This document shows, piece by piece, positions 49,260 through 61,222 of a stretch of DNA of 64,000 bases. How positions within the stretch are numbered: position 1 is the stretch's first letter; each line of letters opens with the position of its first letter. The DNA comes from Hydrogenophaga sp. (lineage in GTDB: Bacteria > Pseudomonadota > Gammaproteobacteria > Burkholderiales > Burkholderiaceae_C): positions 62,001-126,000 of the forward strand of contig NZ_JAHBZK010000009.1 in the NCBI RefSeq assembly GCF_019635465.1. The letters run 5' to 3'. The notes beneath the pieces are model-generated. The model did no database searches. It was given only the letters and a program-made list of their open reading frames with translations, and was not told the DNA's origin. Made by a program: the position numbers and the translations under genes.

Positions 49260-49336
49260 CGGAGCGTAGCGCAGCCTGGTAGCGCATCTGCTTTGGGAGC
49301 AGAGGGTCGCGAGTTCGAATCCCGCCGCTCCGACCA
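49260..49336 (+). tRNA. tRNA-Pro (anticodon TGG)
   Basis: A 77-nt cloverleaf with acceptor CGGAGCG / CGCTCCG, anticodon loop TTTGGGA (TGG at 34-36), TPsiC loop GTTCGAATC and an encoded CCA. The C1-G72 pair is the usual mark of bacterial tRNA-Pro. Confidence 0.96.
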
Positions 49337-49350
49337 TTCACACCAGAAAG

Positions 49351-49378
49351 AAAAAGGCCCACGCTGTGGGCCTTTTTT
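49351..49378 (+). terminator. Intrinsic terminator after tRNA-Pro
   Basis: A 12-bp stem (AAAAAGGCCCAC / GTGGGCCTTTTT, loop GCT) with a T6 run. It lies between the tRNA-Pro and tRNA-Arg genes and suggests they are separate transcripts. Confidence 0.8.
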
Positions 49379-49400
49379 CCATCCGCAGCGCATCCGCGCT

Positions 49401-49477
49401 CTGCCCGTAGCTCAACTGGATAGAGCAGCTGCCTTCTAAGCAGCAGGTCGGGGGTTCGAGTCCCTCCGGGCAGGCCA
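49401..49477 (+). tRNA. tRNA-Arg (anticodon TCT)
   Basis: A 77-nt cloverleaf with acceptor CTGCCCG / CGGGCAG, anticodon loop CTTCTAA (TCT at 34-36, reads AGA/AGG), TPsiC loop GTTCGAGTC, discriminator G and an encoded CCA. It decodes codons that are rare in this GC-rich coding sequence. Confidence 0.95.
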
Positions 49478-50176: not shown

Positions 50177-51364
50177 ATGACCACCCGCCGTCTCGTTCTG
50201 ACCCGCAGCGCTGCCGTGATCGGCGCCGCCTCCTCCGGCCTGCTGCTGCCGCAAATCGTCCGTGCGCAGTCCGACAAGCTGCGCGTGGGCTTCATGCTCC
50301 CCTACACCGGCACCTTTGCGGCCCTGGGCGTGGCCATCGAGAACGGCTTTCGCATGGCCCTCAACGAGCAAGGTGGCAAGCTCGGTGGGCGTGAGATCGA
50401 ATTCTTCAACGTCGACGACGAATCCAACCCGGCCAAGGGTGTGGAGAACGCCACCAAACTGGTGCAGCGCGACAAGGTGGATGTGCTGGTGGGCACGGTC
50501 CACTCGGGCGTGCAGATGGGTATCCACCGCGTGGCCCGCGAATCGGGTGTGCTCAACCTGATTCCCAACGCTGGCGTGCACATCGCCACGCGCGCCCAGT
50601 GCGCCCCCAACGTCTACCGCACCTCGTTCACCAACAGCCAGCCGACGCTGGCACTGGGCAAGCCCATGGTCGAGCGCGGTCACAAGAAGGCGGTCTGGAT
50701 CACCTGGAACTACGCCGCCGGCGACGAGGCCTACGAGGGCTTCGAGAAGAGCTACACCGAAGCGGGCGGCCAGATCATCAAGAAGCTGGGTGTGCCGTTC
50801 CCCAACGTGGAATTCCAGGCCCTGCTGACCGAGATCGCAGCGCTCAAACCCGACGCAGTGGCCTGCTTCTTTGCGGGCGGTGGTGCGGCCAAGTTCCTGC
50901 GCGACTACCACGCGGCCGGTCTGAGCAAAACCATCCAGCTCTACGGCTCGGGCTTCCTCACCGAGGGTGTGCTGGATGCCGCCGGTGATGCCGCCAACGG
51001 CGTGCTCACCACCATGCACTACAGCGATTCGCTGGACACGCCGCGCAACAAGAAATTCCGCCTCGACTACGCCAAGACCTTCAAGCTGCAACCCGACGTC
51101 TATGCCGTCCAGGGCTACGATGCCGGCCAGTTGCTGATCAAGGGCGCCAACGCGGTCAAGGGTGACTTCGGCAACAAGAAGGCGCTGTACGCCGCCATGG
51201 ACGGCGCCGAGATCGACAGCCCGCGCGGCAAGTGGAAGATGAGCCCGGCACACAACCCCATCCAGGACTTCTACCTGCGCAAGGTCGAAAACAAGGAGAA
51301 CAAGGTGATCGGCATCGCCGGCAAGGCCGTCTCCGATTCGGGCGCAGGCTGCCGCATGGCCTGA
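50177..51364 (+). CDS. Branched-chain amino-acid-type ABC transporter substrate-binding protein
   Basis: Periplasmic binding protein of the LivK/Peripla_BP_6 family, 395 residues. The leader MTTRRLVLTRSAAVIG is twin-arginine-like and ends IVRA. The mature part has LRVGFMLPYTGTFAALG, VDVLVGTVHSGVQMGI and IQLYGSGFLTEG. In Burkholderiales this family binds not only amino acids but also aromatic acids and amides, so the ligand is open. An AGGAG box precedes the ATG. It leads a complete livKHMGF set. Confidence 0.9.
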   Translation: MTTRRLVLTRSAAVIGAASSGLLLPQIVRAQSDKLRVGFMLPYTGTFAALGVAIENGFRMALNEQGGKLGGREIEFFNVDDESNPAKGVENATKLVQRDKVDVLVGTVHSGVQMGIHRVARESGVLNLIPNAGVHIATRAQCAPNVYRTSFTNSQPTLALGKPMVERGHKKAVWITWNYAAGDEAYEGFEKSYTEAGGQIIKKLGVPFPNVEFQALLTEIAALKPDAVACFFAGGGAAKFLRDYHAAGLSKTIQLYGSGFLTEGVLDAAGDAANGVLTTMHYSDSLDTPRNKKFRLDYAKTFKLQPDVYAVQGYDAGQLLIKGANAVKGDFGNKKALYAAMDGAEIDSPRGKWKMSPAHNPIQDFYLRKVENKENKVIGIAGKAVSDSGAGCRMA

Positions 51365-51386
51365 GGCTTGCTTCCCATCTGACGAG

Positions 51387-51410
51387 CCGGCGCCCTCGCG
51401 GCGCCGGTTT
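51387..51410 (+). terminator. Hairpin attenuating read-through from livK to livH
   Basis: CCGGCGCC and GGCGCCGG (8 bp, loop CTCGC) are followed by TTT only. A weak terminator or RNA-stabilising structure here would make the binding protein more abundant than the permeases, as is common in such operons (inference). Confidence 0.5.
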
Positions 51411-51430
51411 GACGTCTGGACCCCGCCTAC

Positions 51431-52294
51431 ATGGACTTCGCCAACTTCCTTATCCAGCTGCTCAACAGCGTCCAGTACGGATTGCTGCTGTTCATGCTGG
51501 CCGCCGGCCTCACGCTGATCTTCGGCATCATGGGCGTGGTCAACCTCGCGCATGGCAGCTTCTACATGCTGGGCGCCTACCTGGCCTGGTTCTTCAGCTC
51601 GCAGTTCGGCAGCCTCACGGCGGCCATCATCGTGGGCGCGGTGCTGGCGGTGGCCTTCGGCTGGCTGCTGGAGTGGCTGCTGTTTCGCCACTTCTACCAC
51701 CGCGATCACCTCGACCAGGTGCTGCTGACCTTCGGCCTGATCTACATCTTTGAAGAGCTGCGCTCCATCTTCTGGGGCGACGACGTGCATGCGGTGCAGG
51801 TGCCGGCCGCGCTGGACTGGTCGATTCCCCTCACCGACACCCTGTCCTATCCGGTCTATCGGCTGGTCATGTCGGGCGTGTGCATCGTGCTGGCCATTGC
51901 GCTGTACCTGCTGATCAGCAAGACGCGCCTGGGCATGAAGATCCGAGCCGGGGCATTCAACCGCGACATGACCGAGTCGCTGGGCGTGAACATCCGCCTC
52001 ATCCACGGCGTGGTATTCGCCCTGGGTGTCGGCCTGGCGGCGGTGGCCGGCATGCTGGCCTCGCCCATCGCCAGCGTGTACCCCGGCATGGGCAGCTCGG
52101 TGCTGATCATGTGTTTCGTGGTGGTGGTGATTGGCGGCATCGGATCGGTGCGTGGCGCGCTGGTCGCGGCGCTGCTGGTGGGCCTGGTCGACACCTTCGG
52201 CAAGGTGCTGTTGCCACAGATCGCCGGCATGGCGGTGTACATGCTCATGGCAGCGGTGCTGCTTTACAAACCTGAAGGGCTGTTCAAGCAATGA
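51431..52294 (+). CDS. livH: ABC transporter permease, LivH type
   Basis: Integral membrane protein of 287 residues with about eight hydrophobic segments. It has the family blocks LLFMLAAGLTLIFGIMGVVNLAHGSFYMLGAY near the N-terminus and VVIGGIGSVRGALVAALLVGLVDTFG near the C-terminus. It is the first permease of the Liv cluster. Its stop TGA overlaps an ATG at 52291 that begins a 28-codon mini-ORF, described separately. Confidence 0.92.
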   Translation: MDFANFLIQLLNSVQYGLLLFMLAAGLTLIFGIMGVVNLAHGSFYMLGAYLAWFFSSQFGSLTAAIIVGAVLAVAFGWLLEWLLFRHFYHRDHLDQVLLTFGLIYIFEELRSIFWGDDVHAVQVPAALDWSIPLTDTLSYPVYRLVMSGVCIVLAIALYLLISKTRLGMKIRAGAFNRDMTESLGVNIRLIHGVVFALGVGLAAVAGMLASPIASVYPGMGSSVLIMCFVVVVIGGIGSVRGALVAALLVGLVDTFGKVLLPQIAGMAVYMLMAAVLLYKPEGLFKQ

Positions 52295-52377
52295 GCATCG
52301 CCGGACCGCTCCAAGATGCGAACGCCCCCTTGGGGGGCAGCGAAGGACATGCAATGCCGAGCGTGGGGGCCACATGA
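52291..52377 (+). repeat. Inserted element with coupling mini-ORF between livH and livM
   Basis: ATGAGCATCGCC (52291-52302) at the livH stop is nearly repeated as ATGAGCATTGCC (52374-52385) at the livM start, 83 bp away. The DNA between has a GCCCCC-TT-GGGGGC hairpin (52324-52338) and ends in GCGTGGGGGCC, features of short intergenic elements I recall from Comamonadaceae (not verified). A 28-codon frame starts at 52291 and stops at 52375-52377, overlapping the livH stop and the livM start by ATGA on each side. It looks like an insertion with target duplication that keeps translational coupling. Confidence 0.6.
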
Positions 52378-53357
52378 GCATTGCCAAAGCCCAACTCGAA
52401 CGGCTGCCGCGCAGCATCGTCGCCGTTCTGATCGTCGGCCTTCTGGCGCTGGCCGCGTTTCCCTTCGTGCCCTTTGATGGCCGCGACTTCTACGTCGGCA
52501 TGCTCACGCAGATGATGATCCTGGCGATCTTCGCCATGAGCCTGGACCTGCTGCAGGGCGTCACCGGACTCGTCTCGCTCGGCCACGCTGCCTTCTTCGG
52601 CCTGGCGGGCTACGCCCTTGCCTTCCTCACCCCCGCCGACACGCCCATCGCTGTGTGGTGGTCGCTGACGGCCGCGGCGGCGGCGGCCGGCCTGGCCGCA
52701 CTGGTCATCGGTTTCTTCGTGGTGCGCACCCACGGCATCTACTTCATCATGGTCACCATGGCCTTCGCGCAGATGGTGTACTTCCTGTTCTTCGACAACA
52801 AGGCGCTGGGCGGCTCCGACGGCATCTACGTGAACTTCCGTCCCGACGCGAGCGCGCTGGGCATCGACCTGGAGAATCGGGTCGCGTTCTATTACTTCAC
52901 GCTGGTGGTGCTGCTGGCGCTGTACTTCGCGCTGCGCAGGCTGTTGTTCTCGCCGTTCGGTCGCGCACTGGCCGGCATCCGGGTCAACGAGCACCGCATG
53001 CGGGCCGTGGGCTACGGCACCTTCGGCTACAAGCTCACCGCATTCACGCTGGCGGGTGCGCTGGCCGGCGTGGCGGGCTACCTGTGGGCAGCGCAAACCG
53101 GCTTCGTCAACCCGGAGCTCATGGGTTTTCACCTGAGCGCGCACGCGATCATGATGGTCATCCTGGGCGGCATGGGCAACTTCGCCGGCGCCATCGTCGG
53201 CGCCTTCGCCTTCGAGTACGTCATGCACCTGTTCAAGGACCTGACCAAGCACTGGCAGTTGCTCATGGGCGGGTTCATCGTGCTGGTGGTCATCGTGGCG
53301 CCACGCGGCCTGCTGGGTCTGGTGGAGCGCTTCACCCGCCGCGGAGGCCAGGCATGA
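52374..53357 (+). CDS. livM: ABC transporter permease, LivM type
   Basis: Second permease of the Liv transporter, 327 residues with about nine hydrophobic segments. The LivM block GLVSLGHAAFFGLAGYALAFL (about 65-85) and the cytoplasmic coupling region FGRALAGIRVNEHRMRAVGY are clear. ATG 52374 is used. Its stop overlaps livG by ATGA. An upstream frame beginning inside livH is rejected. Confidence 0.92.
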   Translation: MSIAKAQLERLPRSIVAVLIVGLLALAAFPFVPFDGRDFYVGMLTQMMILAIFAMSLDLLQGVTGLVSLGHAAFFGLAGYALAFLTPADTPIAVWWSLTAAAAAAGLAALVIGFFVVRTHGIYFIMVTMAFAQMVYFLFFDNKALGGSDGIYVNFRPDASALGIDLENRVAFYYFTLVVLLALYFALRRLLFSPFGRALAGIRVNEHRMRAVGYGTFGYKLTAFTLAGALAGVAGYLWAAQTGFVNPELMGFHLSAHAIMMVILGGMGNFAGAIVGAFAFEYVMHLFKDLTKHWQLLMGGFIVLVVIVAPRGLLGLVERFTRRGGQA

Positions 53358-54118
53358 GCGAATTGCTGCTTTCTGCAAAACAACTCACCAAGCGCTTCGG
53401 TGGCCTGGCCGCGGTCAACGACGTGTCGGTCAATCTGCACCGCGGGCGCATTCACGCGGTGATCGGGCCCAACGGCGCCGGCAAGTCCACGCTGACCAAC
53501 CTGCTCTCGGGCGACCTGCCGCCCACCAGCGGGCGCATCGAACTCAATGGGCAGGACATCACCGGCTGGTCACCCGAGCGCATCTCACGCCAGGGCCTGG
53601 GCCGCAGCTACCAGAAGACCAACATCTTTCTGCCCTTCAGCGTGTGGGACAACGTACGTCTGGCCGCGCAGTCGCGCGAGCGCCAGCTTCCGTTCAATCC
53701 GCTGCACTGGTTCACGAGTGCGGCCCGCATGAGCGAAGTCAATGCACGTTGCGAGCGCGCCATCGAACTCGCCGGTCTGACCGAACGCACGCACCAGATC
53801 GCCGCAGCCATCAGCCACGGCGAGCAGCGCCAGCTCGAGGTGGCCATGACGCTGGCGACCGAGCCCACCGTGCTGCTGCTGGACGAACCCCTGGCCGGCA
53901 TGGGCGCGGCCGAAGCCGAGAGCATGGTGGCGCTGCTGCAGCGCCTCAAACCCGAGCACGCCATCATGCTGGTCGAGCACGACATGGACGCTGTCTTCGC
54001 GCTGGCCGATGTGCTGACCGTGATGGTCAATGGCCAGGTGATCGCCAGCGGCACGCCCGAGCAGATCCGCAACGACGAAGGCGTGCAGGCCGCCTACCTC
54101 GGGGAAGAACACGCATGA
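53354..54118 (+). CDS. livG: ABC transporter ATP-binding protein, LivG type
   Basis: Nucleotide-binding subunit of 254 residues with Walker A GPNGAGKST (about 37-45), the LivG-specific GRSYQKTNIFLPFSVWDNV Q-loop region, signature ISHGEQRQLEVAMTLA (S-H-G-E replaces the usual LSGGQ), Walker B VLLLDEPLAGMG and H-loop LVEHDMDAVF. It overlaps livM and livF by four bases each. Confidence 0.93.
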   Translation: MSELLLSAKQLTKRFGGLAAVNDVSVNLHRGRIHAVIGPNGAGKSTLTNLLSGDLPPTSGRIELNGQDITGWSPERISRQGLGRSYQKTNIFLPFSVWDNVRLAAQSRERQLPFNPLHWFTSAARMSEVNARCERAIELAGLTERTHQIAAAISHGEQRQLEVAMTLATEPTVLLLDEPLAGMGAAEAESMVALLQRLKPEHAIMLVEHDMDAVFALADVLTVMVNGQVIASGTPEQIRNDEGVQAAYLGEEHA

Positions 54119-54825
54119 ACGCGCTCATCGACGCCCGCGGCGTGCACACCCACTACGGCCAGAGCCACATCCTGCGCGGGGTCAATCTGCGCATCGAGGC
54201 CGGCCAGACCATCGGCCTGATGGGCCGCAACGGCATGGGCAAGACCACGCTGCTCAAGTCCATCGTCGGGCTGGTCAAACCCAGCGGCGGCCAGGTGCAG
54301 GTCAGGGGCCGCGACATGACCGGCGCCACCCCCTACGCGGTGGCGCGCGAGGGCATTGCCTACGTGCCCGAAGGCCGTGGCATCTTCGGCAACCTGAGCG
54401 TGAAAGAGAACCTGGTGATGGCCGCCCGCCCGGGCACACGTGGCCAGCGCGAGTGGACCTACGAGCGCGTGCTCGAGACCTTTCCGCGCCTGGCCGAGCG
54501 CCTGGGCCATGGTGGCCAGCAACTCAGCGGCGGCGAGCAGCAGATGCTCACCATCGGCCGCGCACTGATGACGAATCCCGACCTGCTCATCCTCGACGAG
54601 GCCACCGAAGGCCTGGCCCCGCTGATCGCGCGCGAGATCTGGCGCATCTGCGGCCTGATCCGCGAGAGCGGTATCAGCAGCGTGATCGTCGACAAGAACT
54701 GGAAACACGTCACGCAGATCACCGATCGCAACCTGATCCTGGTGAAGGGCGAGGTGGTGTTTGAAGGGGCCACTTCGGAACTGCTCGCCAAGCCTGAATT
54801 GCTGGCCCTGCATCTGGGCGTTTAG
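54115..54825 (+). CDS. livF: ABC transporter ATP-binding protein, LivF type
   Basis: Second nucleotide-binding subunit, 236 residues, with Walker A GRNGMGKTT (about 37-45), LivF's AYVPEGRGIFGNLSVKENL, signature LSGGEQQMLTIGRAL and Walker B LLILDEATEGLAP. The H-loop His is replaced: the sequence reads SVIVDKNWKHV instead of the usual EQN or H-loop pattern. It is the last gene of the liv operon; a GACCACGC/GCGTGGTC hairpin lies at 54849-54875. Confidence 0.93.
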   Translation: MNALIDARGVHTHYGQSHILRGVNLRIEAGQTIGLMGRNGMGKTTLLKSIVGLVKPSGGQVQVRGRDMTGATPYAVAREGIAYVPEGRGIFGNLSVKENLVMAARPGTRGQREWTYERVLETFPRLAERLGHGGQQLSGGEQQMLTIGRALMTNPDLLILDEATEGLAPLIAREIWRICGLIRESGISSVIVDKNWKHVTQITDRNLILVKGEVVFEGATSELLAKPELLALHLGV

Positions 54826-55265
54826 TTCGCACGCTGGCTTCGCTCGACGACCACGCGCTGGCGGCTGGCGTGGTCCGCGTTCTCCGGCCCACGCTCGCGG
54901 GCGTCTGCACCCTCACTCAAACATCGGTTCATCAACACCGTGTCGGCGCTCTGCCTCAGCGGCAACCGCGAATGGGGCCTGCGCCCGCGAACCCCACCAG
55001 CCACCGAGAGTGACGAGCAGGCATGCCTGCGGCGGTTTTCGGCGGTGTGTCGGAGCGCCACCGGGGTCGATGGGGTGGGTGTCCGCTCGCAGGCGCCAAT
55101 TCGCGGTTGCCACTGAGGTCGCGTGCCCAAAGCGGTGTGACGCCCGGGTGCAGGCCTGCCTAAGCAGACGCCCGCGAGCAAGCCGGAGAACGGATACCCA
55201 CCCCGTCGACCCTGAACAAACGTTGGAGAGAAGCGCCAGCCCAGAGCAAACGTTGGCGAGAAGGC
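54826..55265. other. Gene-free 440-bp gap with nested inverted repeats
   Basis: No convincing gene lies between livF and the GntR regulator. The open frames on the minus strand (about 119 and 66 codons) have no ribosome-binding sites and cover the inverted repeats described below, so I do not call them. The gap holds a livF-proximal hairpin, the concentric inverted repeat at 54878-55192, and a 30-bp tandem duplication at 55214-55273. Confidence 0.6.
54878..55192. repeat. Large concentric imperfect inverted repeat
   Basis: Two pairs of arms share one centre near 55036. Outer arms are 54878-54908 and 55164-55192: CGTTCTCCGGC and GCTCGCGGGCGTCTGC match perfectly, separated by 4 or 2 nt. Inner arms are 54954-54979 and 55092-55118 (about 26 nt with three differences, core GGCAACCGCGAAT). 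A perfect palindrome GCAGGCATGCCTGC (55017-55030) lies near the centre. A further inverted pair, 55064-55085 with 55191-55212 (20 of 22 matching), overlaps the right arm. A transcript would fold into a long hairpin. No target-site duplication was found. Confidence 0.65.
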
Positions 55266-55273
55266 TCAGCCCA
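55214..55273. repeat. 30-bp tandem duplication
   Basis: Two adjacent 30-bp units (55214-55243 and 55244-55273) match at 25 of 30 positions, sharing CAAACGTTGG and GAGAAG. The second unit covers the stop codon and last codons of the GntR-family regulator gene, so duplication probably started from the regulator's 3' end. Confidence 0.7.
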
Positions 55274-55985
55274 CCACCAGCTTCATCAACGGCATCACCC
55301 GCTCACTCTCCGATCGCCGCTCCAGCGCCAGGCGCATGTTCATCTGCGCCACCTCGGTGTGCTCGGTGCCCAGCGCCTGGGCCCGCGCACCTTCGCCGCG
55401 TTTGAGCGCATCGAACAACATGTGGTGTTGCCGGTGGGCATAGAGCATCCAGTCACGGTCCAGCGCCACCGTGCCTTGCATGGGCAGCATGGCCGATGCC
55501 GGCGCAAAGGGCAGCTTGTCGTTGAGCGTCACGGCGCGCTGCAAGGCGCGGTTGCCGCAAGCCGCCAGGATCAGCGCATGAAAGCGGTCGTTCATGCGGG
55601 CGTAGGCGGCATAGCTCTCCAGCGTGAGCGGGTCATCGGCCAGCAGCCGGTCGCCCTCTTCCAGCGCGGCCTGCAGGTCGTGCTGCAGCGCGCGCGACAG
55701 ACCGTGCTCGGCCACCAGGCGCGCGGCCATGCCTTCCAGGTGACCGCGCACCGCGATGGCGTCGATCACCTCCTGCGCGGTGAACTGACGCACCAGGAAC
55801 TTGCCCGTGTCATTGGCTTCAACCAGCCCCTCCTGCTCCAGCGTCACCAGGGCCGCCCGCACCGGTGTGCGAGACGCCCCCAGCCGCTCGGCCAGTTGCT
55901 GTTCGGCCAGGCGCTGCCCGGGCTCGAATTCGCCCGACAGGATCCAGTCGCGCAATTGCATCAAAACAGTTTCTTGCAAGCTCAT
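55266..55985 (-). CDS. GntR family transcriptional regulator with FCD domain
   Basis: A 239-residue regulator. The N-terminal winged helix-turn-helix includes GQRLAEQQLAERLGASRTPV, and the all-helical FCD ligand domain (about 85-230) carries the metal/ligand His and Asp pattern (ARMNDRFHALILAACGN). Such regulators usually respond to organic acids and often sense the substrate of an adjacent catabolic operon. It is divergent from the Rieske oxygenase gene across a 73-bp spacer containing a palindromic candidate operator. Confidence 0.9.
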   Translation of the reverse strand: MSLQETVLMQLRDWILSGEFEPGQRLAEQQLAERLGASRTPVRAALVTLEQEGLVEANDTGKFLVRQFTAQEVIDAIAVRGHLEGMAARLVAEHGLSRALQHDLQAALEEGDRLLADDPLTLESYAAYARMNDRFHALILAACGNRALQRAVTLNDKLPFAPASAMLPMQGTVALDRDWMLYAHRQHHMLFDALKRGEGARAQALGTEHTEVAQMNMRLALERRSESERVMPLMKLVVG

Positions 55986-56011
55986 GGCGCGAGAATGTAC
56001 ACTGAATCGCC

Positions 56012-56029
56012 AAAACGGTATCCCGTTTT
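56012..56029. promoter_or_regulatory. Palindromic candidate operator of the GntR-type regulator
   Basis: AAAACGGTATCCCGTTTT contains perfect 7-bp arms (AAAACGG / CCGTTTT) around a 4-nt centre. It lies in the 73-bp spacer between the divergent regulator and Rieske genes. It is A/T-richer than its surroundings. A second possible site, GTACAC, is at 55997-56002. Confidence 0.55.
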
Positions 56030-56058
56030 ACCCTGATCGATTCATCACCTACCGCCCC

Positions 56059-57447
56059 ATGAAAGCCGAACTCAATCAACGCCTGACCCAGGTCGGCCCC
56101 GGCACCCCCGCCGGTGAGCTGCTGCGCCGCTACTGGCAGCCCGTCGCCCTGCTCGACGAATTCGACCCCGCCATCGATCCGGCCATGGCCGTGCGGCCGG
56201 TCAAGCCGGTACGCCTGCTGGGCCAGAACTTCGTGCTGTTCAAGGATGCTCAGGGCCGCTTCGGCATGCTCGACCGCGACTGCCCCCACCGCGGCGCCGA
56301 CCTGGCTTTCGGCCGCAACGAAGGCGACGGCCTGCGCTGCCCCTTCCATGGCTGGAAGTTCGACGTCGAAGGCCGCTGCCTGGAAACACCGGCCGAACCC
56401 GTGGGCAGCACCCTGTGCCAGCGCGTACGCCAGCAGAGCTACCCGCTAGTGGAACGCAGCGGCGTGCTGTTTGCCTGGCTCGGCGCCGAAGGCAAAGCGC
56501 CGCCACTGCCGGCGCTGGACTGCTTTGAAGCGCCAGCCAGCCACACCTTTGCCTTCAAGGGCCTGTGGAACTGCAACTGGCTGCAGTCGCTGGAAGTCGG
56601 CATCGACCCGGCGCACGCCTCCTACCTGCACCGCTTCTTCAACGACGCATCGCTGGACGACGCCTATGGCAAACAGTTCCGCGGCGCCAGTGCCGGCGAG
56701 GTCGAGGGCGAACGCTGGCCCATGACGCGCGTGATGCGCGAGTTCGGCCGCCCGGACATCAGCCACGAAGCCAAGCCCTGGGGCCTGCAGCTGACCGCCC
56801 TGCGCCAGCTCAACGAGCAGCTCACCCACGTGCGCGTGACCAACGCGGTGTTCCCGCAGACCTTCGTCATTCCGCTGTCGGAGACCATGACCATCACCCA
56901 GATGCATGTGCCGGTGGACGACACCCACAACTACTGGTACGCCTTCTTCACCAGCTTCGATGCGCCAGTGGACAAGGCCGCCATGCGCACGCCGCGGCTG
57001 CAAGCGGTGACCCTGCCCTTCTTCGAGCCGAAGATGGGCCGCCACAACCACTGGGGCTTCAACCCGCAGGAGCAGGTCGAGCGCACCTACCTCGGCATGG
57101 GTGAAGACGACATCAACGTGCACGACCAATGGGCTTGCGAGAGCATGGGCGCCATTCAGGACCGCACCCGCGAGCACCTGGGCACCAGCGACAAAGTCAT
57201 CATGGCCCACCGACGGTTGCTGCAGCAGGCCATCGACGCCGTCGAGAACGGGGGCGATGCACCCGGCATTGCCAGCACCGCCAGCCTGGCCGAGATCAGC
57301 GGGCCCGACACCATCGACGGCTTTGCGCCCACCGGCGCCTGGCAGGACTGGTGGCAGACCGCCGTGCGCGAGCGCCGCGAGCGCGCACCCTGGACCGTTG
57401 AGGGCAAAGCCCTCGCAGACGCAGCCGCAGCGTTAGGCGCCAAATGA
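56059..57447 (+). CDS. Rieske non-haem iron oxygenase, alpha subunit (LigXa/phthalate-dioxygenase type)
   Basis: Terminal oxygenase of 462 residues. The Rieske [2Fe-2S] cluster is bound by C75-x-H77 and C94-x2-H97 (DRDCPHRGAD and LRCPFHGWKFD). The mononuclear iron site is D183-x2-H186-x4-H191 within EVGIDPAHASYLH, with E179 as likely bridge to the neighbouring subunit. Length and layout fit alpha3-type demethylases/hydroxylases such as LigXa, rather than alpha3-beta3 dioxygenases; no beta subunit is encoded. Substrate unknown. Its stop overlaps the next start (ATGA), so oxygenase and GS-like ligase are coupled. Confidence 0.88.
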   Translation: MKAELNQRLTQVGPGTPAGELLRRYWQPVALLDEFDPAIDPAMAVRPVKPVRLLGQNFVLFKDAQGRFGMLDRDCPHRGADLAFGRNEGDGLRCPFHGWKFDVEGRCLETPAEPVGSTLCQRVRQQSYPLVERSGVLFAWLGAEGKAPPLPALDCFEAPASHTFAFKGLWNCNWLQSLEVGIDPAHASYLHRFFNDASLDDAYGKQFRGASAGEVEGERWPMTRVMREFGRPDISHEAKPWGLQLTALRQLNEQLTHVRVTNAVFPQTFVIPLSETMTITQMHVPVDDTHNYWYAFFTSFDAPVDKAAMRTPRLQAVTLPFFEPKMGRHNHWGFNPQEQVERTYLGMGEDDINVHDQWACESMGAIQDRTREHLGTSDKVIMAHRRLLQQAIDAVENGGDAPGIASTASLAEISGPDTIDGFAPTGAWQDWWQTAVRERRERAPWTVEGKALADAAAALGAK

Positions 57448-58919
57448 CCTTTTCTGCCCTCTGCGGCGTGCACGACGCCGCGCGCGAAGCCGCCTGCCTG
57501 CGCCTGAAGCGGCTCATCGAGGAGCGCGGCATCCAGCGGGTGCGTCTGGCCTGGTGCGACGCCCATGGCCTGCTGCGCGGCAAGACGCTGATGCCCCACG
57601 CCGCGTTGCGCGCATTGCGCGACGGCGTCGGCATGGTGGGCACGCTGATGCTCAAGGACACCGCCGACAAAACGGCGTGGAAGGTATTCGAGCCCGGTGG
57701 CACCGACGACCTGCCGGGCTTTGCCGGTGCGGCCAACCTGCTGCTGCTGCCCGACCCCGAGAGCTTCGTCGAGTTGCCCTGGGCGCCCGGCACCGGCTGG
57801 CTGCGCTGTCAGCCCTGGCACGCCGACGGCCAGCCCGTGGACTTCGACAGCCGGCGCGTGCTGCAGCATGCGCTGGCGACGCTGGCGCGCGAAGGGCTGG
57901 GCTTCAAGACCGGGCTCGAGGTCGAGTTCCACATCTACCGCATCACCGACACCACGCCGCAGCTCGATCCGCAACGCGCGGCCTGGCCCGGTGAGCCACC
58001 CGCCATGCAGATGGTGCACCCCGGCTACCAGTTGCAAGGCGAGGCCATGATCGACCTGGCCGACGAGCCGCTGCGCATCGTCGAGCGCACCGCACTGGGC
58101 CTGGGCCTGCCACTGCAGTCGCTCGAAATCGAGCTTGGCCCCAGCCAGGTCGAGGCGGTGTTCGATGCCACCGACGCGCTCACCGCCGCCGACCAGATGG
58201 TGCAGTTGCGCAACGGGGTGAAGCAGGCGCTTCGCCGCGCCGGCTACCACGCCACGTTCATGTGCCGTCCGCCGTTTCCCAACATCATGTCCAGCGGCTG
58301 GCACCTGCACCAATCGGTGGTGGAGCTGGCCACCGGCCGCAATGTGTTCGCGCGCGACGAGCCGCTGGTGGGCAGCACGCCGCAGGACGCGCAGCACACA
58401 CTGAGCAAGACCGGCGCGCACTGGCTGGCCGGCCTGCTCGCCCATGCCCGCGCCATCACGCCGCTGTGCACGCCCACGGTCAACGGCTTTGGTCGGTTCC
58501 GGCCCAACGCCCTCGCGCCGCAAGCCATTCTGTGGGGGCGCGACAACCGCGGCGCCATGCTGCGCGTGGTCGGCAACGCGGGCGACGCCGCCACACGCAT
58601 TGAAAACCGCCTGGGTGAACCGGCGGCCAATCCGTACCTGTGCATGGCCGGGCAGATCCACGCCGGGCTCGACGGCCTCAAGCGCGCACTGCTCCCTCCC
58701 ACCGGCACCGAAGCGCCTTACGCCGAAGGCGCCGAGCGCATTCCCACCAACCTTGGCGACGCATTGGCCGCCTTGCGCGCGGACCCGGCCATGGTGCAGG
58801 GCCTGGGCGAATCGGTGGTGAACCACTTCTGCCGCATCAAGCAGCAAGAGCTCGACCGCCACGCCGCCGCCGAAGACAAGGCAGATTTCGAACGCCGCGA
58901 GTACTTCGCCCGCTACTGA
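57444..58919 (+). CDS. Glutamine-synthetase-like ligase (probable gamma-glutamyl-amine synthetase)
   Basis: GS-family protein of 491 residues. It has the N-terminal beta-grasp domain (RLAWCDAHGLLRGK) and catalytic blocks GLEVEFHIY, ELGPSQVEAVF, MCRPPFPNIMSSGWHLHQS and WGRDNRGAMLRV, covering ATP, metal and glutamate sites. GlnA-like adenylylation and full-length features are missing; the sequence resembles GS-like enzymes that glutamylate amines (PuuA, IpuC, aniline AtdA1/TdnQ). Next to a Rieske oxygenase this recalls aniline-type dioxygenase systems, where glutamylation activates the amine. That role here is inference. Confidence 0.85.
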   Translation: MTFSALCGVHDAAREAACLRLKRLIEERGIQRVRLAWCDAHGLLRGKTLMPHAALRALRDGVGMVGTLMLKDTADKTAWKVFEPGGTDDLPGFAGAANLLLLPDPESFVELPWAPGTGWLRCQPWHADGQPVDFDSRRVLQHALATLAREGLGFKTGLEVEFHIYRITDTTPQLDPQRAAWPGEPPAMQMVHPGYQLQGEAMIDLADEPLRIVERTALGLGLPLQSLEIELGPSQVEAVFDATDALTAADQMVQLRNGVKQALRRAGYHATFMCRPPFPNIMSSGWHLHQSVVELATGRNVFARDEPLVGSTPQDAQHTLSKTGAHWLAGLLAHARAITPLCTPTVNGFGRFRPNALAPQAILWGRDNRGAMLRVVGNAGDAATRIENRLGEPAANPYLCMAGQIHAGLDGLKRALLPPTGTEAPYAEGAERIPTNLGDALAALRADPAMVQGLGESVVNHFCRIKQQELDRHAAAEDKADFERREYFARY

Positions 58920-58982
58920 AGCAACACCCCCACGATCCTTTGGGCGCTGAGGGTTGCGCGTTCGGCGAGACCGCTCGATCTA

Positions 58983-59038
58983 CCCAACGCCCAACGCCCA
59001 ACGCCCAACGCCCAACGCCCAACGCCCAACGCCCAACG
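58983..59038. repeat. Heptanucleotide tandem repeat (CCCAACG)8
   Basis: Eight perfect copies of CCCAACG fill 58983-59038, ending one base before the ferredoxin ATG. No Shine-Dalgarno sequence is visible between the array and the start codon. Since seven is not a multiple of three, changes in copy number would also shift any reading through it. Confidence 0.95.
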
Positions 59039-59039
59039 A

Positions 59040-59366
59040 ATGATGATCCAGATCCACTTCATCGCCCCCGACCAGCGCACCCGCGACGTGCAATGTGCGC
59101 CCGGCCAGAGCCTCATGAAAGCCGCAGTCGATGCCGGCATCGATCAGATCGCCGCCGACTGCGGCGGCACGCTCACCTGCGCCACCTGCCACGTCTATGT
59201 CGACGAGGCATGGGTGGGCCGGCTGCCCGCACCGGTCGCCGACGAATCCGACATGCTCGATTTCGCCGCCGCCGCGGTGAAGCCGAACAGCCGCCTGTCC
59301 TGCCAGATCATGCTCACGCCCGAGCTCGATGGTCTGGTGGTGCACCTGCCGGACACCCAGTACTGA
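59040..59366 (+). CDS. [2Fe-2S] ferredoxin, adrenodoxin type
   Basis: Electron carrier of 108 residues. The cluster ligands are C41, C47 and C50 (CGGTLTCATC: C-x5-C-x2-C) and C88 (SCQI), with the acidic DEAWVG and PVADESDMLDFA region typical of vertebrate-type ferredoxins. It most likely passes electrons to the Rieske oxygenase. The start MMIQ offers two ATGs (59040, 59043). It follows the (CCCAACG)8 array and is 24 bp before the hydrolase gene. No ferredoxin reductase is nearby. Confidence 0.88.
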   Translation: MMIQIHFIAPDQRTRDVQCAPGQSLMKAAVDAGIDQIAADCGGTLTCATCHVYVDEAWVGRLPAPVADESDMLDFAAAAVKPNSRLSCQIMLTPELDGLVVHLPDTQY

Positions 59367-59390
59367 GCGGCGGTGGCACACTCGCACCCC

Positions 59391-60089
59391 ATGACCTCCT
59401 ACCTGTTCACCCCACCCCCCACCGTGTCCGTGCCCATCGTGGGGCGTGGCGAGCGCTTCCCGGTTCACCGCATTTACTGCGTCGGCCGCAACTACGAAGA
59501 GCATGCGAAGGAAATGGGCTTCACCGGCCGCGAGCCGCCGTTCTTCTTCCTCAAGCCGGCCGACGCCATCGTGGTGGCCGATGCGGGCCAGACGGCCAGC
59601 ATGCCCTACCCGTCGCTGACCAAGAACCTGCACCATGAGATCGAACTGGTGGTGGCCATCGGCACGGGTGGCAAGAACATCGCCGCGGCCGACGCGTTCA
59701 AGCACGTCTACGGCTACGCAGTGGGTCTGGACATGACGCGCCGCGACCTGCAAAACGACATGAAGAAACAGGGGCGCCCCTGGTCCATCGGCAAAGGCTT
59801 CGACCACTCGGCGCCCATCGGCCCCATCACCCCGGCAGATCAAGCCGGAGACGTGGTCAATGCCGCCATCTGGTTGCAGGTCAATGGCGCCGACCGTCAG
59901 CGCAGCGCCGTGAACAAGCTGATCTGGAACATCGCCGAGACCATCGAGCACCTGTCGGCCGCCTGGGAACTGCAGCCTGGCGACCTCATCTATACCGGCA
60001 CCCCCGAAGGCGTGAACGCGGTCGTCGCGGGCGACGTCCTGCATGGTGGCGTCGACGGCCTGACACCGATCACGGTGAAAGTGGTCTGA
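59391..60089 (+). CDS. Fumarylacetoacetate hydrolase family protein
   Basis: FAH-superfamily enzyme of 232 residues. It has [13 protein letters not shown] at the N-terminus, metal ligands Glu/Glu in [11 protein letters not shown] and Asp in [22 protein letters not shown] and the C-terminal [15 protein letters not shown]. The family hydrolyses acylpyruvates and oxo-acids from ring cleavage or decarboxylates oxaloacetate. In this setting it may process a downstream catabolic intermediate. ATG 59391 is used. Confidence 0.9.
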
Positions 60090-60175
60090 TCCCCGCCTGC
60101 GGGTATCACCTCTTCCCACACCCACAGCGATAGTTCAAGCTTCAATCGATCATCAACCCGAAGGAGACCCATCCC

Positions 60176-61222
60176 ATGATCCAGCGCAGAACCCTGATCC
60201 AGTCCGGTGCGGCCATCGCCCTGGGCGCACCCGCGCTCACCGGCTTTGCCCAGTCGAGCGTCACGCTCAAGTTCCACACCTTCATGGCGCCGCAGTCCAA
60301 CGTGTGGCTCAACATGCACAAGGCCTGGATGGACAAGGTCGAGAAGGACTCGGGCGGACGCATCAAATTCGAGGCCTACCCCGCCATGCAGCTGGGTGGC
60401 TCGCCGGTGCAGTTGTACGACCAGGCCCGCGACGGCGTGGTCGACATCGTGTGGACGCTGCCGGGCAACACGCCGGGCCGCTTCCCGCGCATCGAGGTGT
60501 TCGAGCTGCCGTTCATGATGAACAACGCAGAGGCAACCTCCAAGGCCTACTGGGAATACGTGCAGACCGTCGCCCAGGACGAGTTCAAGGAAACCCAGCC
60601 CATCGCCCTGCAAGTGCATGGCCCCGGCGTGATCCACATGCGCAGCAAGCAGATCAACTCGGCCGAAGACCTGCGCGGCTCCAAGGTGCGCGGCCCGACC
60701 CGCCAGATCACCAAGATGCTGGGCTACCTGGGCGCCACCCCGGTGGGCATGCCGCTGCCGCAGATCCCGGACTCGCTCTCCAAAGGCGTGATCGACGGCT
60801 GCGTGATCCCCTGGGAAGTCGTCCCCGCCGTCAAGGTGCACGAGCTGACCAAGTTCCACAGCGAGTTCGATCCCGCTGGTGGCGCGCTCTACACCACCAC
60901 CTTCGTCATGGCCATGAACAAGGCCAAGTACAACAACCTGCCGCCCGATCTCAAGGCCGTCATCGACAAGCACTCCGGTCTGGAAACCTCCGGCTGGCTG
61001 GGCAAGGTGCAGCAAAGCGGTGACGTCGCCGGTCGCAAGGCCGCGGTGGACCAGGGCAACACCATCCACACCATCTCGGCCACCGAAGCGCAGGAGTTCA
61101 AGCGCAAGGCAGCCCTGGTGGAAGTGGAGTGGGCGCAGGAGATGGACAAGCGCGGCTACGACGGCAAGAAACTGCTCGAGACGGCCAAGGCGCTGATCGC
61201 CAAGCACGGCAAGAAGGCCTGA
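60176..61222 (+). CDS. TRAP transporter solute-binding protein, DctP family (orphan)
   Basis: Periplasmic binding protein of 348 residues. The leader MIQRRTLIQSGAAIALGAPA has a twin-arginine-like pair and ends GFAQS. The mature part has LKFHTFMAPQSNVW, ARDGVVDIVWTLPG and the ligand-binding Arg in KVRGPTR. DctQ and DctM membrane subunits are not adjacent: a Nudix gene follows. It may work with a TRAP permease elsewhere or serve as a receptor. An AGGAG box lies before the ATG. Confidence 0.9.
   Translation: MIQRRTLIQSGAAIALGAPALTGFAQSSVTLKFHTFMAPQSNVWLNMHKAWMDKVEKDSGGRIKFEAYPAMQLGGSPVQLYDQARDGVVDIVWTLPGNTPGRFPRIEVFELPFMMNNAEATSKAYWEYVQTVAQDEFKETQPIALQVHGPGVIHMRSKQINSAEDLRGSKVRGPTRQITKMLGYLGATPVGMPLPQIPDSLSKGVIDGCVIPWEVVPAVKVHELTKFHSEFDPAGGALYTTTFVMAMNKAKYNNLPPDLKAVIDKHSGLETSGWLGKVQQSGDVAGRKAAVDQGNTIHTISATEAQEFKRKAALVEVEWAQEMDKRGYDGKKLLETAKALIAKHGKKA

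What the first reader, a model, noticed from the sequence alone, without database searches (positions are those of the whole stretch)
50177..61222. Candidate uncharacterised import-and-oxidation system: Liv ABC + GntR/FCD + Rieske oxygenase + GS-like ligase + ferredoxin + FAH hydrolase + TRAP binding protein
The Rieske and GS-like genes overlap (ATGA), then come a [2Fe-2S] ferredoxin and an FAH hydrolase, with a divergent FCD regulator on one side and a complete Liv transporter beyond it. GS-like plus Rieske is the logic of aniline dioxygenase systems (AtdA/TdnQ), but here the oxygenase is the single-subunit LigXa type and neither the small subunit nor an amidotransferase is present. Two different binding-protein classes suggest two substrates or two uptake routes. 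No ring-cleavage enzyme or reductase is in the window, so the pathway must be split.
Basis: partly seen in the sequence, partly recalled or inferred. Interest (0 to 1): 0.7.

Follow-up and report, generated by a model that had tools for sequence, protein, structure and literature searches.

The report
Sulfanilate-type aromatic amine oxidation operon
A Hydrogenophaga-like bacterium carries the known sad-type operon that probably tags an acidic aromatic amine with glutamate and then oxidises it; most of it is already described, but its natural substrate, its switch and a substrate-charge signature can now be tested.

Summary
The genes are there as stated. [quoted passage not shown] PMC5632844). 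The Rieske-GS pair is genuine: the two lie within 126 bp in 80 of 80 named loci, and 53 of 67 genomes of the genus hold the oxygenase. In 40 genus loci FAH (37), ferredoxin (36), DctP (36) and FCD (33) are conserved, Liv in only 2, so Liv is a clade-specific neighbour. New here: (1) a palindrome over the sadA promoter, present in 33 of 33 genus loci with FCD and 0 of 7 without, but missing from two more distant loci with FCD; (2) an invariant lysine (139 of 139) in the amine-entry loop of the ligase, absent from 10 of 10 hand-picked relatives of the naphthylamine ligase, and an invariant arginine (145 of 145) where phthalate-type oxygenases bind carboxylate. Both suggest an anionic aromatic amine. 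Likely mechanism: gamma-glutamylation, then dioxygenation to a catechol. Best natural-substrate guess: an aminobenzoate, perhaps 4-aminobenzoate; unproven, and gentisate-type neighbours in some lineages speak against that isomer.

The parts
55266..55985 (-). GntR/FCD regulator, divergent; probable repressor of sadA (inferred)
   Evidence: Pfam GntR + FCD; in 33 of 40 genus loci; co-occurs with the operator
55996..56001 (+). candidate -35 box TGTACA of the sadA promoter
   Evidence: TGTACA-N16to18-(T/G)AT(A/C)CC in 32 of 33 genus loci with FCD, 0 of 7 without; read in the window
56012..56029 (.). candidate FCD operator, inverted repeat AAAACGG-TATC-CCGTTTT, overlapping the candidate -10 (TATCCC 56019-56024)
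56059..57447 (+). SadA-type Rieske oxygenase, 462 aa (Rieske + LigXa_C)
57444..58919 (+). SadB-type glutamine-synthetase-like gamma-glutamyl amine ligase, 491 aa
58983..59038 (.). 8 perfect copies of CCCAACG just upstream of the ferredoxin start; not in 37 relatives measured
59040..59366 (+). [2Fe-2S] ferredoxin (SadD-type), 108 aa
   Evidence: matched in 36 of 40 genus loci
59391..60089 (+). FAH-family hydrolase, 232 aa; relatives directly follow gentisate 1,2-dioxygenase in Caenimonas and Ramlibacter (and, by clustering only, Polaromonas)
   Evidence: 37 of 40 genus loci
60176..61222 (+). orphan TRAP binding protein DctP; relatives in other genera have DctQM beside it
50177..54825 (+). LivKHMGF ABC importer; neighbour, not part of the conserved unit of the genus
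   Evidence: present in 2 of 40 genus loci

Best explanation
This is a chromosomal sad-type operon (FCD regulator, sadA, sadB, ferredoxin, with FAH and DctP attached). SadB ligates L-glutamate to the amino group of an anionic aromatic amine at the cost of ATP (inferred). The single-subunit SadA, fed by the ferredoxin and a reductase from elsewhere, dioxygenates the gamma-glutamylated ring at the nitrogen-bearing carbon and its neighbour (inferred; the net step 4-aminobenzenesulfonate to 4-sulfocatechol is published for Hydrogenophaga PBC). The product loses its nitrogen, by my inference as glutamine, and leaves a catechol. The FCD protein represses sadA by binding the palindrome over the -10 box and lets go when substrate or product is present (inferred). 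The physiological substrate is probably an aminobenzoate rather than sulfanilate.
For: One such locus in 52 of the 53 positive genomes among 67 of the genus, two in the other. Published sad genes are Rieske, glutamine synthetase and ferredoxin, conserved in Hydrogenophaga. The sulfanilate degrader Novosphingobium resinovorum SA1 carries the same pair, 54% and 43% identical. The best solved relative of SadB, over its whole length, is NpaA1, a proven aromatic-amine glutamyl ligase. Metal, glutamate and nucleotide residues are kept (one of them Arg in 138 and Lys in 1) and the flap Glu is Leu or Met in 139 of 139 distinct ligases. Lys71 in 139 of 139, in 0 of 10 hand-picked controls. Arg259, at the place of the carboxylate-binding Arg of isophthalate and phthalate dioxygenase, in 145 of 145 distinct oxygenases. 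Operator and FCD co-occur in the genus. A protocatechuate ligA and a ligB-type gene are in the genome.
Against: The SadA/B sequences of strain PBC are not held, so identity to them was not measured. The discoverers are reported to have proposed that SadB removes the amine after hydroxylation (PMC3704786). No ferredoxin reductase of the Reductase_C type was found in the genome (88% complete). Gentisate-pathway genes adjoin the pair in several lineages, which fits a 2-hydroxybenzoate product better than protocatechuate. Two loci with a more distant FCD gene (L185, L290) lack the palindrome. Of the 10 control ligases only NpaA1 has a known substrate in what I read. The Asp50 place of glutamine synthetase is variable and Asp in 5 of 19 here, in an unsure part of the alignment.
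Confidence: 0.78

Rival explanations
1. SadB acts after the oxygenase: the ring is hydroxylated as the free amine and SadB then removes the amino group, as the discoverers proposed.
For: The proposal rests on gene deletion and transposon mutants of strain PBC, as told in PMC3704786 (passages).
Against: Its nearest characterised relative glutamylates first, and the dioxygenase there uses the gamma-glutamyl amide (PMC11335346 section 7); the active site keeps the ligase residues.
Confidence: 0.12
2. The natural substrate is an ortho- or meta-substituted amino acid of the ring (for example 3-aminobenzoate or anthranilate) feeding a gentisate-type ring cleavage, and FAH is the last step of that path.
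For: Gentisate 1,2-dioxygenase over its curated cut-off directly before FAH beside the pair in one Caenimonas and one Ramlibacter locus tested; matches to gentisate dioxygenase in 17 and to 3-hydroxybenzoate 6-monooxygenase in 13 of 80 named loci; a gentisate-dioxygenase-like cupin overlaps the oxygenase gene in L072 and L073 and lies nearby in L075; FAH kept in 37 of 40 genus loci.
Against: In the window's genome the gentisate dioxygenase model scores 250 bits against a cut-off of 442; the gentisate block has a MarR gene beside it and is absent from many loci with the pair.
Confidence: 0.25
3. The whole stretch 50177-61222 is one import-and-oxidation system with Liv as its importer.
For: Liv genes also adjoin the pair in other lineages (12 of 19 loci, one of them showing only LivF inside the stretch; Polaromonas JS666; L071-L073 and L075).
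Against: Liv is beside the operon in 2 of 40 genus loci; the window LivK is only 23-35% identical to the binding proteins compared beside the pair elsewhere.
Confidence: 0.12

Closest known systems
sad operon of Hydrogenophaga intermedia PBC (4-aminobenzenesulfonate 3,4-dioxygenase)
   Same: Rieske, GS-like and ferredoxin genes; conserved in the genus
   Different: PBC also has the acquired 4-sulfocatechol genes; here the three intradiol-dioxygenase matches include no adjacent PcaH-PcaG pair
Aniline / naphthylamine dioxygenase (AtdA, TdnQ, NpaA1-A5)
   Same: GS-like ligase near a Rieske oxygenase; the window ligase is 37% identical to NpaA1
   Different: of 7 such plasmid loci read, 7 have alpha and beta oxygenase genes, 6 an annotated amidotransferase and 5 an annotated reductase (the plasmid gene table is incomplete); here one subunit, none of the rest, and Lys71 in place of Phe, His or Val
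Isophthalate and phthalate dioxygenase of Comamonas testosteroni KF1
   Same: alpha-only oxygenase, nearest solved structures; carboxylate-binding Arg kept
   Different: His257 of the first is Gln281 here; Arg207 of the second falls in an alignment gap; no GS partner mentioned in the passages I read
Pair on Polaromonas JS666 and Methylobacterium nodulans plasmids
   Same: Rieske-GS pair with [2Fe-2S] ferredoxin
   Different: both carry a ferredoxin reductase-like gene; JS666 also Liv and an amidotransferase; M. nodulans a nitroreductase and a 4-hydroxylaminobenzoate lyase nearby

Membership tests
sad operon (SadA-SadB-ferredoxin) | alpha-only Rieske gene followed by GS-like and ferredoxin genes | tested here: met
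sad operon (SadA-SadB-ferredoxin) | single orthologous locus in the genus where sad was described | tested here: met
sad operon (SadA-SadB-ferredoxin) | high identity to SadA WP_009515254.1 of strain PBC | not testable with these tools
   that record was not at hand
sad operon (SadA-SadB-ferredoxin) | turns 4-aminobenzenesulfonate into 4-sulfocatechol | not testable with these tools
   needs an enzyme assay
Aniline dioxygenase (AtdA/TdnQ) | alpha and beta oxygenase subunits | tested here: not met
   only an alpha-type gene
Aniline dioxygenase (AtdA/TdnQ) | amidotransferase and reductase in the operon | tested here: not met
   none among the eleven genes; no match to the JS666 amidotransferase or reductase in 40 genus loci
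Glutamyl organic amine synthetase (GoaS) | ATP, glutamate and metal residues kept; flap Glu lost; extra N-terminal loop present | tested here: met
   criteria from PMC11335346 sections 10, 12, 15. The paper prints the lost flap residue as Glu357; at that number both NpaA1 and the window keep Glu, so I took Glu327 (recalled), which is Leu or Met in all
Glutamyl organic amine synthetase (GoaS) | Asp50 of glutamine synthetase lost | tested here: inconclusive
   variable, Asp in 5 of 19, next to an alignment gap
Gentisate pathway hydrolase (for the FAH gene) | gentisate dioxygenase beside the FAH gene | tested here: not met
   not among the window genes nor matched in the 40 genus loci; met in Caenimonas and Ramlibacter
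Complete TRAP transporter | DctP with DctQ and DctM | tested here: not met
   no DctQM beside it; a related complete TRAP set, DctP 53% identical, lies on contig C16

The most novel reading that the evidence does not exclude
The sad family is an old, widely kept pathway for natural anionic aromatic amines, above all 4-aminobenzoate, that hands the ring to the protocatechuate pathway and the amine nitrogen to the cell as glutamine, under an FCD switch in this genus; sulfanilate breakdown is a side activity. Lys71 of the ligase and Arg259 of the oxygenase are the paired readers of the substrate's negative charge.
Probability: 0.35. Interest if true: 0.6.

Novelty: new member of a known kind. Interest (0 to 1): 0.42.

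Why it matters
Two papers (PMC3704786, PMC5632844) leave open what the sulfanilate dioxygenase was made for. The conserved operator, the charge-reading residues and the genus-wide conservation turn that into a few simple tests, and they warn that 'Rieske plus GS-like' genes should not be annotated as aniline degradation by default.

Tried and rejected
Liv as part of the unit: rejected on 2 of 40 genus loci. The first candidate for DctP's missing permease (best match to the L081 DctM, contig C9) lies beside what by eye are a LacI-type regulator, a gluconokinase and its own DctP, so it was dropped; contig C16 holds a better candidate. A 4-nitrobenzoate link (4-hydroxylaminobenzoate lyase near the pair) was matched in 1 of the 40 loci compared (L186), so it is weak support. 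Paper searches for a 4-aminobenzoate dioxygenase (listings) gave nothing on point; passages of PMC10470067 claim a 4-aminobenzoate path via 3-oxoadipate in Ralstonia without naming Rieske or GS genes. More operator copies in the window: 6 matches with up to 2 mismatches against 4.6 expected, one perfect. The first ORF caller missed genes and was replaced. Structure prediction and fold search were not used.
Full report
Observation. Eleven open genes lie at 50177-61222 as described. The oxygenase starts at 56059 and overlaps the GS-like gene by ATGA; ferredoxin, FAH and DctP follow; FCD is divergent.

Where it comes from. The window is part of a 3.9 Mb, 29-contig genome, 88% complete. So the genus is Hydrogenophaga by inference.

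The pair is real. In the order sample (300 genomes) 19 genomes hold an oxygenase match at E <= 1e-140; in 17 the GS-like gene is beside it. G052 ends at the contig edge. G137 is a miss on a short contig: ferredoxin follows the oxygenase directly (L060), and its GS match (50%) is on another contig. A scan of named genomes kept the best 80 of 564 loci, so it leans to near relatives; the GS match begins within 126 bp of the end of the oxygenase match in 80 of 80. In the genus 53 of 67 genomes have the oxygenase, 41 of 44 of the assemblies at least 90% complete and at most 5% contaminated. I fetched 40 of the 52 other positive genomes (of the 12 left out G049 was read as L058, 11 were not read): GS 40, FAH 37, ferredoxin 36, DctP 36, FCD 33, Liv 2, and no match to DctQ, DctM, gentisate dioxygenase, 3-hydroxybenzoate 6-monooxygenase, ferredoxin reductase or amidotransferase queries. 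In the phylum sample 21 of 398 genomes have it; GS follows in the 19 loci fetched (all but G000 and G049), and 16 of these show an IclR-type match, some weak.

What it is. Sections 3, 11, 12 and passages of PMC5632844 name sadA as 4-aminobenzenesulfonate 3,4-dioxygenase, sadB as glutamine synthetase and sadC (SadD in the same legend) as ferredoxin, found by transposon mutagenesis, and say that the operon is conserved in Hydrogenophaga while the 4-sulfocatechol genes are not. The 2012 paper on these genes is cited there but is not held. Because each positive genome but one has a single such locus, this locus is by inference the sad operon of its host; I could not compare it with the PBC proteins. 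The sulfanilate degrader N. resinovorum SA1 carries the pair on plasmid pSA3 with a ferredoxin, a ferredoxin reductase-like gene, a glutaminase and maleylacetate reductase. PMC3704786 (passages) reported two such pairs in another Novosphingobium and left the natural substrate open.

How it works. The GS-like protein's best solved relative is 8wwu (E 2e-157), which a listing ties to PMC11335346 and whose sequence is 99.8% that of the JS3066 plasmid gene, so it is NpaA1. NpaA1 glutamylates 1-naphthylamine; its dioxygenase takes the gamma-glutamyl amide and the amidotransferase is dispensable (section 7). That explains why the missing amidotransferase need not matter. Of 161 loci, 153 gave a ligase beside the oxygenase that passed the filters (139 distinct) and 159 an oxygenase (145 distinct). 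The residues that bind metal, glutamate and nucleotide are kept (Arg369 is Lys in one), the flap Glu is Leu or Met in 139 of 139, and the N-terminal loop missing from E. coli glutamine synthetase is present. The paper prints the lost flap residue as Glu357; that number is Glu in NpaA1 and here, so I took Glu327, from memory. The other residue it names, Asp50, is variable here and Asp in 5 of 19, in an unsure part of the alignment. In the loop NpaA1 uses Phe75 against its neutral amine (section 12); here the place is Lys in 139 of 139. Ten control ligases picked by hand from the 50 records have Phe (8), His or Val: 7 lie beside alpha/beta oxygenase genes, 1 has none within 4.5 kb, 2 records had no annotation; only NpaA1's substrate is known to me from a call. 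In the oxygenase the cluster ligands are kept in at least 144 of 145, and the bridging Asp183, His186, His191 and Asp356 in 145 of 145; Arg259, at the place of IPDO Arg234 and PDO Arg244, in 145 of 145; IPDO His257 is Gln281 in all, and PDO Arg207 falls in a gap (passages of PMC12445078). Together these suggest an aromatic amine with one negative group. They are alignment results, not structures of a complex.

Regulation. Between FCD and sadA lies TGTACA-N17-TATCCC with the inverted repeat AAAACGG-TATC-CCGTTTT over the -10. A site within 3 mismatches of AAACGGTATACCGTTT is upstream of sadA in 33 of 33 genus loci with FCD and 0 of 7 without; in the named set, which overlaps the first, in 27 of 32 with an FCD match in the locus and 0 of 46 without. 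Against it: the FCD-bearing loci L185 (Polaromonas JS666 plasmid) and L290, whose FCD is 55-56% identical, lack the site. Loss of FCD can remove the whole intergenic stretch, so the two are not independent losses; but the motif is also kept in Polaromonas, Tepidicella and Ramlibacter.

Surroundings. In one Caenimonas and one Ramlibacter locus tested the FAH gene directly follows a gentisate 1,2-dioxygenase over its curated cut-off, and in Caenimonas a 3-hydroxybenzoate 6-monooxygenase over its cut-off lies in the same block. FAH in the window may therefore be a leftover of that block, though its keeping in 37 of 40 genus loci argues for some present use. DctP sits beside DctQM in other lineages, also without gentisate genes (Rubrivivax, Ideonella), so TRAP uptake is linked to sad; here the permease is missing and a related complete TRAP set lies on contig C16, the contig that holds ligA and a ligB-type gene for protocatechuate.

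Natural substrate. For 4-aminobenzoate: it is the carboxylate twin of sulfanilate, the product would be protocatechuate, the lig genes are present, and M. nodulans has 4-hydroxylaminobenzoate lyase nearby (1 locus). Against: gentisate-type genes beside the pair in several lineages, and the p-aminobenzoate auxotrophy reported for H. intermedia. I give an aminobenzoate of any kind about 0.65 and the 4-isomer about 0.4. Release of the nitrogen as glutamine is my inference from the chemistry of a cleaved gamma-glutamyl anilide; the glutaminase near the SA1 pair fits it.

Noticed in passing
58983-59038: Eight perfect copies of the 7-base unit CCCAACG end one base before the ferredoxin start codon. 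In 37 relatives the gap is 1-68 bases; the only two long enough to hold such an array (53 and 68) do not. It may be a variable or assembly-borne insert that disturbs translation of the ferredoxin.
   Followed up: partly
L058 and L295 (Hydrogenophaga PBL-H3): One strain carries both the chromosomal sad pair and a plasmid aniline-type GS-amidotransferase-alpha/beta oxygenase-reductase set, so the two systems are separate.
   Followed up: partly
L072 and L073: A gentisate-dioxygenase-like cupin gene, below the family cut-off, overlaps the sadA-like gene by a few bases, with a Liv importer upstream: possible ring-cleavage partner of this branch.
   Followed up: partly
L184:11952-12293 and L187:9361-9699: A small CHMI-family protein of about 112 residues lies beside the GS-like gene in Novosphingobium SA1 and Pseudooceanicola; role unknown.
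   Followed up: no
55210-55273: A 30-base unit repeated about twice between livF and the FCD gene.
   Followed up: no
49260-49477: tRNA-Pro and tRNA-Arg genes upstream of the Liv genes, a possible integration spot for the clade-specific Liv block.
   Followed up: no
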